This document shows, in pieces, positions 55,601 to 56,916 of a DNA stretch of 64,000 nt (the first letter of the stretch is position 1; each line of letters opens with the position of its first letter). A model generated the notes under the pieces. The model was not told the DNA's origin, made no database searches, and saw only the letters and a list, made by a program, of their open reading frames with translations. Source of the stretch: Lunularia cruciata (taxonomy: Eukaryota; Streptophyta; Marchantiopsida; Lunulariales; Lunulariaceae); contig OX419757.1 in NCBI GenBank assembly GCA_948567375.1, forward strand, positions 28,948,732 to 29,012,731, written 5' to 3'. A program made the position numbers and the translations under genes.

Positions 55601-56391
55601 CACTCATTGCTTGGCAGTATCTAGTAGAGGGGATATGTCTATTAGAGTTGTTTGGTGGGATCAGCACCGGACTAGCTGCGGTGTTACAGGCGAGTATCCG
55701 AGTACAGAGGTACTTGTATGTAGAGAGAGATGAGACTACTAGGCGAGTCTCTCTACATCATGTGGCACACTTGGCCTATCGGTATCCGGAGTTATTACCG
55801 ATGTCAGCAGTCAGAGGTTACCAGAAGGCCTTACCAGGAGACATTTCCTTATTGGGGGCGCATGACCTAGAGAGACATGGGCCTATTCACTTGGTGATTT
55901 CTGGATGGCCATGTCAGGGACATACACGTGCGGGCCGCGGTTTGGGTCTTCAAGATCCTCATTCTGGTGTGTTTTGGGAGATGTTATGGATACTACGACA
56001 TCTCCAGGTTCATCAGTCTGTTTCTCCAGCTTACCTTTTGGAGAACGTTCTATTGATGGGTGATTCTTGCACTAGAGTGGTGGCGAGTACACATCAGGTC
56101 CATTCTTGGATGGGACTTGCTGTATTGTTAGATGCAGCCAGAGTGGGATCACGGGCTCATCGTCTTCGTCTTTGGTGGACGAACCTTTTACCCAGAGAGG
56201 TTCTACAGCGTAGTTATGATGGGATTCAGCGACTAGACCACATTCTTGTTGATGATATCTTGGATGCTAGACGTCAGTCTCAGACAGTGGTAGTGGCTGA
56301 TAGGTCACCTATGGCAGTGGTGAACCTAGTTGGACAGCCTAGAGCTGCATTTCCCACACTCATGAGTTTCCCAAGCTCTCATGCTTTTTGA
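52684..56391 (+). CDS. C2 Gag, protease and N-terminal part of a C5-cytosine DNA methyltransferase
   Basis: The frame is open from 52684; the first ATG is 52924 (MDKIYGASKGP). Gag core: FDSWCDLQQMRN, FFLCLRQNYQGV, SLREAYTRMRRLI. Two zinc knuckles: CWTCGGPHHRREC and CEHCHRFGHTSDRC. A glycine/arginine-rich stretch (GGRGGRGGGRGS) follows. Aspartic protease: LLDSGAQ, Asp codon 54919-54921. Methyltransferase from about 55606: motif I LELFGGISTGLAAVL (cofactor loop); motif IV SGWPCQGHTRAG, catalytic Cys codon 55912-55914; ENV motif VI at 56041-56049; then RLRLWWTN (motif VIII-like). It would methylate C5 of cytosine, perhaps on the element's own cDNA. TGA at 56389-56391 cuts the domain before its last motifs, but the frame continues. 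All catalytic residues visible here are intact. Confidence 0.93.
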   Translation: MRLQLVVWVCCCSYVVTTEFFGDSRGVSPAVRSGFTRSGARYQPVSQVPVREEIDSELEFDTGADSVESALGVSAPLLWDMDKIYGASKGPRRYSGTVGTIELDDFIQEFDSWCDLQQMRNPTLFTPFMAWKGLFQHLEGPPMDNYHEFRRAHLEEIELWRQYWSPHYVSITSGSVARSRSAVPTSSSSSSVGGASGGALAGDSATTSGGTAAGGGVVPGFNPMVEFFLCLRQNYQGVRTDKLRSLQEFQRKAGESLREAYTRMRRLISFTQGVTEAQAVQFWYGILDRELRRRVRDATLLQATSPTLAVVFGLAERIELNMVEERVVTAGFGRETSSTVVTSSRVQQSAPRPVGFRGQGGQPKSYGASGGPSGVRPLPSFSGQQQPVSGGVACWTCGGPHHRRECTQGSGPDTSGASQPAQRQCEHCHRFGHTSDRCFDLHPELRSGRAAMTGSRGAPVHGGRGGRGGGRGSTPSRGAVPALTSDTAMATRIEQLEQRLASMAIAHRRSDLGAEASTSYTGDRDALDFMCGATQVDASTAVTRNAVRAPEPRGASVELDPQRGEVGRQVRLPQSFTLSEALQTTSMVPRRPSAGVVGGDGVPDGVPASQPPATTQTESSMMLGAAQLIMRHPLFSANDMFTLGVDPAPVFRLAATLCESRDGAVPTTRAEVVGSGADLVEEHGIHSATSGLWQAAVARLEELPARPAFERARFTPGVVLLDNQRGIFHLVGPSGKVYTPQRVLLDSGAQPLMLEKAAVVGLELRKTDVERCPFQIQTSLGGGSTQYITRGELVVQVQPGHPTDSSVVRAQAIATIAESYDVLVGGAVLYPMGFSIDYWEETASYRPGWQSGEGRVCRLQVRFSSGSLGSLQSGTMAASVLAFSGVVTWPGDLLEGNAHAKDTPVPEEITQLWSTSGIVPSTLDVPLWSSEEALQQHADQLVQQAWSGAFVPSGDECEDEPPEAIALTPLDTTLIAWQYLVEGICLLELFGGISTGLAAVLQASIRVQRYLYVERDETTRRVSLHHVAHLAYRYPELLPMSAVRGYQKALPGDISLLGAHDLERHGPIHLVISGWPCQGHTRAGRGLGLQDPHSGVFWEMLWILRHLQVHQSVSPAYLLENVLLMGDSCTRVVASTHQVHSWMGLAVLLDAARVGSRAHRLRLWWTNLLPREVLQRSYDGIQRLDHILVDDILDARRQSQTVVVADRSPMAVVNLVGQPRAAFPTLMSFPSSHAF

Positions 56392-56916
56392 GAGGGAGGA
56401 CCTGGACTTGTTTGGGACTCACAGTTACAGCAGTTGGTGGAGCCCAATGCTGATGAGAGAGAGCGGGCGATGGGTTTTCGCACCGGTATTACCGCTGTTC
56501 CAGTAGTGTCAGAGGCATCCAAGCGTCAGGTGTTAGGTCAAGCTATGGACCTGAACTGTTTGACCTGGATTGTGAGCCTTGGTTTGGCAGAGCAGCGTAG
56601 GATGCGCTTGATAGGCATCACCACTCGGACACTTGTGAGCCCTGTGCCTATCGAGACGATTCAGGCACATGCTGGGGGCGATGGACCGAGTGGACATGGT
56701 ATTCTTGGGACACATCCAGTAGCTACTAGGGAGAGTGGTCTACTTGGAGTCCATCCAGGTGAGCGTGGGCTACTTGGATTACACCCTTGGTCCACATGGG
56801 ATGCAGCCAGAGGACGTATGGAGCTTGCAGCTAGAGTGGAGGGAGTTTTTCACATAGAGGTTGGGACCTCTAGTGGTCGGGAGCATGACACCATTGCTCC
56901 CAAGGGCCCAGTATAG
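56392..56916 (+). CDS. C2 methyltransferase C-terminal part, ending at a probable leaky UAG
   Basis: In frame with the preceding segment after TGA 56389. It has EGGPGLVWDSQLQQLVEPN, then ERERAMGF and RQVLGQAMDLNCLTW, which correspond to the C-terminal motifs IX-X of C5-methyltransferases (ER-x-MGF; LGNA/LG-x-A). These are needed to complete the cofactor pocket, so the upstream TGA must be read through or was a sense codon (CGA is one transition away). An ordinary linker follows, with HPGERGLLGLHP-type repeats. It ends at TAG 56914-56916, which is followed by CAG CCA. Confidence 0.85.
   Translation, partial: EGGPGLVWDSQLQQLVEPNADERERAMGFRTGITAVPVVSEASKRQVLGQAMDLNCLTWIVSLGLAEQRRMRLIGITTRTLVSPVPIETIQAHAGGDGPSGHGILGTHPVATRESGLLGVHPGERGLLGLHPWSTWDAARGRMELAARVEGVFHIEVGTSSGREHDTIAPKGPV

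What the first reader, a model, noticed from the sequence alone, without database searches (positions are those of the whole stretch)
55606..56600. A Ty3/gypsy retrotransposon (C2) encodes a C5-cytosine DNA methyltransferase between protease and RT
Seen: motif I LFGG (55648-55659), catalytic PCQG (Cys codon 55912-55914), ENV (56041-56049) and C-terminal ERERAMGF and LGQAMDLN, in order and in frame between a DSG protease and a YIDD reverse transcriptase. Established: capture of DNA methyltransferases by retrotransposons has been reported in charophyte algae and dinoflagellates. Inference: this is a land-plant member in which the element could methylate its own cDNA or host loci. The second, much older copy (C1) carries the same domain at the same place, so the domain is an ancestral part of the family rather than a chance fusion.
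Basis: partly seen in the sequence, partly recalled or inferred. Interest (0 to 1): 0.92.

Follow-up and report, generated by a model that had tools for sequence, protein, structure and literature searches.

The report
Jumping element carrying DNA-methylating enzyme
A very abundant retrotransposon family in what is probably a liverwort genome carries its own cytosine DNA methyltransferase and a chromatin-reading finger, as do relatives in other green plants and green algae, so a genomic parasite seems to have kept a tool for marking DNA over deep time.

Summary
One frame (52621-60030) reads Gag-protease-C5 methyltransferase (MTase)-RT-RNase H-integrase-PHD finger. The MTase is DNMT3-like by profile and fold. 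The window copy is dead: TGA at 56389 splits the domain, and more stops follow. The domain is a fixed part of a large family: 146 scored places, 94-100% identical. It is also in the old copy C1 and in Marchantia, Riccia, Calypogeia, Sphagnum, Closterium and chlorophyte proteins. Variants shared between copies are constrained (N/S 0.30; RT 0.31).

Beyond the finding: (1) the MTase lies upstream of a UAG in the leaky context UAG CAG CCA (11 of 11 copies read; 100 of 100 listed pattern matches; C1 keeps the UAG), so it should be made at Gag level and Pol by readthrough. (2) The repeats are split (A1-int-B1A2-B2), with a DDE integrase and exact 4-bp target duplications in 10 of 11. (3) MTase and RT trees broadly agree on one old acquisition, later moved within the polyprotein. 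A Dnmt3-carrying gypsy with DIRS-like repeats is known from Klebsormidium (PMC5890265), so this is a new variant of a known kind. What the enzyme methylates is untested.

The parts
50928..50931 (.). 5' target-site duplication cgtg
   Evidence: repeated at 60862-60865
50932..51380 (+). repeat A1 (split direct repeat), begins TGTCACG
   Evidence: 4 mismatches of 449 to A2
51381..51391 (+). PBS-like stretch CATCAGAGAAG after A1 (resemblance to the complement of initiator tRNA recalled)
   Evidence: printed; tRNA match not tested
52924..54918 (+). Gag, with zinc knuckles by eye; ATG 52924 aligns with Met1 of Marchantia P0001
   Evidence: Pfam Gag match only E 0.039
54919..54927 (+). DSG of the aspartic protease (by eye)
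   Evidence: Pfam protease match in relatives P0018 and P0038 only
55591..56601 (+). DNMT3-like C5 methyltransferase domain (Cys 55912-55914, ENV 56041-56049)
56389..56391 (+). private premature TGA within the methyltransferase of this copy
   Evidence: no stop at this codon in the 10 other copies read
56914..56922 (+). conserved UAG CAG CCA, readthrough-type stop between MTase and Pol
   Evidence: 11 of 11 copies; 100 of 100 listed of 131 matches; C1 keeps TAG
57277..57753 (+). reverse transcriptase (YIDD)
   Evidence: PF00078 E 1.5e-32
57943..58320 (+). RNase H (RT type)
   Evidence: PF17917 E 1e-35
58759..59259 (+). integrase: H2C2 zinc finger and DDE core
   Evidence: PF17921, PF00665
59890..60024 (+). 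PHD finger at the integrase C-terminus
   Evidence: PF00628 E 7.4e-12
60187..60198 (+). polypurine-type tract (ctaggggggcga) before B1
60199..60304 (+). repeat B1
60307..60755 (+). repeat A2; the B1-A2 junction is the palindrome GACAGCTGTC
60756..60861 (+). repeat B2, ends ACGACA
60862..60865 (.). 3' target-site duplication cgtg
33404..37597 (-). old copy C1: gag-protease-methyltransferase (MTase 33609-34871), frames broken; TAG kept at the same site
19998..21010 (-). old copy C1: RT/RNase H piece
13147..14363 (-). old copy C1: integrase piece, separated from the rest by nested gypsy elements

Best explanation
The locus is a dead copy of a very abundant Ty3/gypsy family that carries a selectively kept DNMT3-like cytosine methyltransferase and an integrase-borne PHD finger. 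Shown here: architecture, conservation, constraint, split repeats, target duplications, conserved UAG. Inferred: the main translation product is Gag-protease-MTase, stopping at UAG CAG CCA, and occasional readthrough adds RT-RNase H-integrase-PHD. The MTase is therefore packaged at Gag stoichiometry, and it most likely methylates the element's double-stranded cDNA in or after the particle, so that new DNA arrives already marked. The PHD finger, of a type that in several known proteins reads unmodified H3K4, would steer integration to inactive chromatin, where marked DNA fits. Also inferred: standard reverse transcription gives BA-int-BA linear DNA; the genomic A-int-BA-B form arises by joining the ends into a two-LTR circle, which the DDE integrase opens at the GACAGCTGTC palindrome inside the repeat.
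For: Domain identity. Catalytic Cys, EN and motif VIII Arg kept in nearly all relatives that cover them. Family-wide presence; C1. Constraint: variants shared between copies have N/S 0.30 in MTase and 0.31 in RT, singletons 0.49 and 0.69 (21 of 36 copies used). UAG: 11 of 11 copies, Pol going on in the same frame; with the stop codon left free in the pattern, 100 of 100 listed of 131 genome matches read TAG; C1 keeps it; 15 of 22 relatives of Gag-PR-MTase type end 71-164 residues after the domain. UAG CAR YYA is called the Type I readthrough motif in PMC11166343 (passages). Repeats and duplications. PHD; found in 93 of 141 relatives, many of the others incomplete. Inserted copies carry C-to-T changes at CG (3.9%) and CHG (3.1%) against CHH (0.5%), a mark of methylated copies.
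Against: No methylation, expression or biochemical data are at hand. The CG/CHG decay is what host MET1/CMT alone would give. The yeast test of the KnitGypsy DNMT in PMC5890265 gave no methylation (called inconclusive there; section read). The copies for N/S were picked by MTase match or long frames, which lowers the MTase ratio; the ten extra copies were picked for frames of 1,428-1,448 codons, which favours finding a stop at that point (one search is free of this bias, but needs exact flanks). No significant RNA structure follows the UAG (z -0.34). Some relatives have ECQ in place of PCQ. Type II relatives carry the MTase in Pol, so Gag-level dosage is not general. Not all the near PHD fingers read H3K4me0. 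The circle model is read from repeat order only.
Confidence: 0.55

Rival explanations
1. The domain is a selectively kept part of the polyprotein, but its role is not methylation of its own cDNA: it acts on host chromatin in trans (silencing host loci or competing copies), or binds nucleic acid without catalysis.
For: PCQ to ECQ in several relatives including Closterium P0038; yeast assay of the KnitGypsy DNMT negative (PMC5890265, section 10 read).
Against: Cys, EN and motif VIII Arg stay conserved in nearly all relatives that cover them, at 33-52% identity among the more distant ones aligned.
Confidence: 0.25
2. Passenger domain: captured once, now decaying without function.
For: The window copy and many others carry stops.
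Against: N/S 0.30 on shared variants, as in RT; conservation from liverworts to chlorophytes.
Confidence: 0.05
3. The methyltransferase came from a phage or bacterial Dcm-like enzyme, not from a eukaryotic DNMT3.
For: Profile A1 scores two enzymes of IMG/VR contigs (83.9, 83.4 bits) like DNMT3A (81.0); the first-half tree leaves the order open.
Against: The 50 listed Foldseek matches and the best 29 PDB sequence matches are DNMT3, but whether the PDB holds enzymes of the viral kind was not tested.
Confidence: 0.25
4. UAG is not a readthrough site, and Pol is made another way (splicing, internal entry).
For: Some Marchantia gene models bridge MTase and RT (P0006, P0013), perhaps by predicted introns.
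Against: UAG in every copy read, same frame, leaky context; no other stop between the ATG and the end of Pol is shared by all 11 copies.
Confidence: 0.15

Closest known systems
KnitGypsy-Dnmt3 of Klebsormidium nitens (de Mendoza et al. 2018, PMC5890265)
   Same: Ty3/gypsy domains, unrearranged Dnmt3 domain in the polyprotein, repeats laid out as in DIRS elements (Fig. 4 legend), purifying selection reported (Ka/Ks < 0.2)
   Different: Reported within the Pol polyprotein; 'PHD' does not occur in the main text, and no UAG or land-plant element was seen in the sections read.
SymbioDIRS-Dnmt3 of Symbiodinium (PMC5890265)
   Same: Dnmt3 domain, split repeats; activity on CG shown in yeast
   Different: Tyrosine recombinase and DIRS RT; here a DDE integrase with 4-bp duplications
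Chromodomain gypsy elements (present in this window)
   Same: Ty3/gypsy Pol order; chromatin reader at the integrase C-terminus
   Different: Chromodomain instead of PHD, no methyltransferase match
SIRE1 and MuLV type in-frame stop (PMC2194720, passages)
   Same: In-frame stop separating coding regions
   Different: SIRE1 has Env after the stop, MuLV has Pol; here Gag, protease and methyltransferase precede it

Membership tests
Ty3/gypsy LTR retrotransposon | Pol order RT-RNase H-integrase with DDE integrase | tested here: met
Ty3/gypsy LTR retrotransposon | Identical full LTRs at both ends | tested here: not met
   A1 at the 5' end, B1A2B2 at the 3' end in 11 of 11 copies
Ty3/gypsy LTR retrotransposon | Short target-site duplication | tested here: met
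   exact 4 bp in 10 of 11; in L033 only with a shifted boundary
DIRS/PAT-type element | Split direct repeats | tested here: met
DIRS/PAT-type element | Tyrosine recombinase, no target duplication | tested here: not met
   rve integrase and 4-bp duplications
DNMT3 family | Sequence and fold nearest DNMT3 among solved structures, motifs in order (not rearranged as in DRM) | tested here: met
DNMT3 family | Tree position inside eukaryotic DNMT3 | tested here: inconclusive
   viral-contig enzymes score alike; few eukaryotic references
DNMT3 family | De novo C5 methylation activity | not testable with these tools
   no assay
KnitGypsy-Dnmt3 | Sequence kinship to the K. nitens element | not tested
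KnitGypsy-Dnmt3 | DIRS-like repeats with gypsy domains and Dnmt3 | tested here: met
Type I (UAG CAR YYA) readthrough signal | UAG CAR YYA | tested here: met
   UAG CAG CCA; motif definition
Type I (UAG CAR YYA) readthrough signal | Measured readthrough | not testable with these tools
   no reporter data

The most novel reading that the evidence does not exclude
A green-lineage-wide clade of gypsy elements carries its own epigenetic kit, a DNMT3-like writer plus an H3K4me0-type PHD reader, and replicates through a two-LTR circle that a DDE integrase opens at a palindrome inside the repeat. In the liverwort branch the writer was placed ahead of a leaky UAG, so every particle holds many methyltransferases and delivers pre-methylated DNA to inactive chromatin.
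Probability: 0.25. Interest if true: 0.92.

Novelty: new variant of a known kind. Interest (0 to 1): 0.72.

Why it matters
Plants silence transposons with cytosine methylation; here transposons keep their own methyltransferase. The cases that I found in print are one charophyte and dinoflagellates (PMC5890265). The same kit in liverworts, a moss, Closterium and chlorophytes would turn a curiosity into an old, widespread strategy with a genetic model host (Marchantia) in which to test it. If the 565.8-Mb host is Lunularia, whose size has been put down to Ty3/Gypsy bursts (PMC9985172, abstract passage), this family may have helped to inflate that genome. The split repeats with a DDE integrase also reopen how such repeats arise without a tyrosine recombinase.

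Tried and rejected
Chance motif match: rejected. Single odd copy or chance fusion: rejected. CMT or DNMT1 type: disfavoured by the nearest structures. Recent capture from the host DNMT3: disfavoured, since the host exon sits by DNMT3A (support 0.93), not by the retro-MTases (first half of the domain only). Tandem or truncated-copy artefact for the repeats: rejected by the same order in 11 copies with duplications outside it. Stable stem-loop after the UAG: nothing significant (pseudoknots not tested). Adenine-methyltransferase look of the tail of type II proteins: no match in Pfam or PDB. NCBIfam gives for the domain only the general dcm model, under its cut-off. Search for diverged subfamilies with the Marchantia domain: not completed.

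Full report
WHAT IS THERE. They lie in one frame, 52621-60030, broken in this copy by TGA 56389 and by TAG at 56914, 57940, 58321 and 59686. Pfam names RT, RNase H, integrase zinc finger and core, and a PHD finger (E 7.4e-12) at the C-terminus; the methyltransferase half upstream of the TGA scores 20.8 bits against a 22-bit cut-off, and Gag only E 0.039. Zinc knuckles and the DSG protease are by eye in the window; Pfam has matches to both, near or below the cut-offs, in relatives P0018 and P0038. The Gag start at 52924 is supported by the first Met of Marchantia relatives (MDGMYG).

WHICH ENZYME. An open sister copy (L035) matches DNMT3A at E 1.8e-11. A profile of 12 sequences (A1) matches DNMT3A at 1.9e-22, DRM2 at 1.8e-10 (an entry called only 'DNA methyltransferase', 4onj, at 2.2e-12) and HhaI at 3.3e-9. 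AlphaFold on a natural relative 75% identical to L035's domain, P0042, gives pLDDT 90.1 and pTM 0.89; the 50 listed Foldseek matches (181 at E <= 0.001) are all DNMT3 structures, best E 4.7e-18, TM 0.84 by target length. Motif order is I, IV, VI, VIII, then ERERAMGF and LGQAMD, so it is not rearranged as in DRM. Against a simple story: the same profile scores two enzymes of IMG/VR contigs at 83.9 and 83.4 bits beside DNMT3A at 81.0. 'DNMT3-like' is secure; 'captured from a eukaryotic DNMT3' is not.

HOST. The genome has 565.8 Mb in 74 contigs, of which the eight large ones seen (60-85 Mb) make up about 558 Mb. PF00145 in the own genome scored 123 places of 2,161 candidates. Four that differed from the element's usual stretch were read; by eye they hold a DNMT3 exon, two DRM exons and a CMT exon (hallmarks recalled), which fits a land plant. 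Other odd ones in that list were not read. Nearest named relatives of the domain are Marchantia polymorpha and paleacea, Riccia, Calypogeia and Sphagnum. Lunularia cruciata (assembly 580 Mb, k-mer estimate 581 Mb, Ty3/Gypsy bursts; PMC9985172, passages) is a fair guess, not a result.

FAMILY IN THE GENOME. 146 places were scored, the top candidates of 12,063 (a lower bound on copies). The exact 30-base pattern around the UAG, stop codon left free, occurs 131 times; the 100 listed all read TAG and 31 were not shown; the reversed-pattern control gives 0. Ten further copies, picked for frames of 1,428-1,448 codons, were read. TAG at frame codon 1431 is the only stop between the ATG and the end of Pol shared by all 11; the picking favours this, one search does not. 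In L037 and L039 the frame shifts after Pol has begun; in the rest Pol goes on in the same frame, with scattered stops. C1, 81-93% identical to the window copy over aligned pieces, keeps TAG there, with its next codon CAG now TAG. UAG CAG CCA fits UAG CAR YYA, called the Type I readthrough motif in PMC11166343 (passages). No special RNA fold follows. Among 22 relatives of Gag-PR-MTase type, 15 end 71-164 residues after the domain, P0005 59 and P0007 13 residues after it, and 5 at its edge; their stop codons cannot be seen, and several are gene models marked partial.

SELECTION AND DECAY. Of 36 copies oriented (the window's own among them), the 21 without gaps were used; 15 were dropped for indels or truncation. 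Variants shared by two or more copies: MTase S 24, N 22 (ratio per site 0.30), RT S 13, N 13 (0.31), Gag-PR S 27, N 33 (0.41), the short linker S 3, N 6 (0.70). Singletons: MTase 0.49, RT 0.69, Gag-PR 0.77, linker 0.43. Bias: 30 of the 36 were the best MTase matches, the other 6 were picked for long frames. C-to-T changes per majority C: CG 177 of 4,515, CHG 291 of 9,471, CHH 143 of 27,132, so inserted copies look methylated at CG and CHG, as the host alone could do. CpG observed/expected is 0.44-0.47 in 11 copies against 0.62 in the window's ATPase frame, 0.60 in a chromodomain element and 0.53 in a flank.

ENDS. All 11 copies have A1-internal-B1-A2-B2 (L035's A1; L037 has one extra B/A junction in its 5' leader). 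The outer ends TGTCACG...ACGACA are flanked by an exact 4-bp duplication in 10 of 11 (nine, L035 read by eye); in L033 the repeat is shifted. The integrase has WSLDFAGP in 10 of 11, and the second Asp and Glu with 34 residues between in the 9 of 11 that the pattern found, with Lys for Glu in the window copy and a stop within the stretch in L033. A purine-rich tract precedes B1 and a PBS-like stretch follows A1, so ordinary reverse transcription would give BA-int-BA. A2-B2 is a direct A-end to B-start fusion, as in a two-LTR circle, and the outer ends are those of the B1-A2 palindrome GACAGCTGTC. Opening a two-LTR circle there yields what the genome shows. This model is mine; de Mendoza et al. 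note a DIRS-like repeat layout for the K. nitens element (Fig. 4 legend).

RELATIVES. Three protein searches gave 41, 380 (120 listed) and 113 hits (in the first two only the candidates sharing most words were scored). Of 141 proteins of the first and third search, 75 read RT-RH-MT-IN-PHD (type II), 22 Gag/PR-MT, and the others are mostly partial; PHD is found in 93. Named type II hosts are the chlorophytes Monoraphidium and Cymbomonas. Type I (MTase before RT) holds Marchantia, Sphagnum, Closterium, the window family and unnamed ones. On 37 MTases and 36 RTs, outgroups counted (28 of 82 type II kept), type II is one clade in both trees (bootstrap 96 and 93), and the retro-MTases form one clade against DNMT3A and two viral-contig enzymes (92); the RT tree joins type I weakly (74), the MTase tree puts Closterium outside. 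The larger FastTree run agrees on the liverwort clade of 14 (1.0), but some deep nodes are weak, and P0041 and P0258 (type I order) fall next to type II in its trees. With host exons added and only the first half of the domain usable, the retro-MTases still hold together, at 0.73. Simplest reading: one old acquisition and one move of the domain. Horizontal spread is not excluded. PMC5890265 called the K. nitens case an independent acquisition; its sequence was not among the hits, so this is not tested directly.

PHD. Its best solved matches are CHD4, KMT2D, MLL3, PHF12, DPF3, KAT6A, KDM5B and PHF21A (60 of 111 shown); some of these read unmodified H3K4 and others do not (recalled). The analogy with the ADD domain of DNMT3 is recalled.

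LITERATURE. PMC5890265: abstract, sections 9-11 and passages read. PMC12344493, PMC6453930 and PMC6338049: passages; none of these mentions land-plant retro-MTases. The listings (20 of 29 listed; no hit) showed, by title and abstract start, no paper that reports this in bryophytes or chlorophytes, or with a PHD finger. Only open-licence PMC papers are held, and supplements could not be read.

VERDICT. A real, old, constrained methyltransferase of a gypsy family; a new variant of a known kind. The substrate and the purpose remain open.

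Noticed in passing
P0022, P0033, P0037 (type II relatives), after the PHD finger: A further C-terminal module, about 190 aa in P0037, with DPWxG..SDLNP..SPHF, by eye like a class I (adenine-type) methyltransferase; no Pfam match, and no PDB match for the P0037 piece.
   Followed up: partly
motif IV of several type II relatives and Closterium P0038: The near-universal PCQ is ECQ.
   Followed up: no
L037 about 1230-2370: An extra B-end/A junction inside the 5' leader, perhaps another product of circle opening or recombination.
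   Followed up: no
window 2020-6644, 14709-17978, 25487-29271 (minus): Other gypsy elements nested into and around C1; Pfam finds a chromodomain in 2020-5751 and 14709-15374.
   Followed up: no
window 39506-42145 (minus): An open frame of 879 codons for a P-type cation ATPase without introns.
   Followed up: no
P0201 2352-2407: PTM/DIR17-like Tudor match after the PHD finger in the Monoraphidium protein, below its cut-off; PF01585 (G-patch, name recalled) listed for P0029, P0162, P0169 and P0245.
   Followed up: no
P0045, P0224: Two relatives are filed under bacterial MAGs, probably eukaryotic contamination of bins.
   Followed up: no
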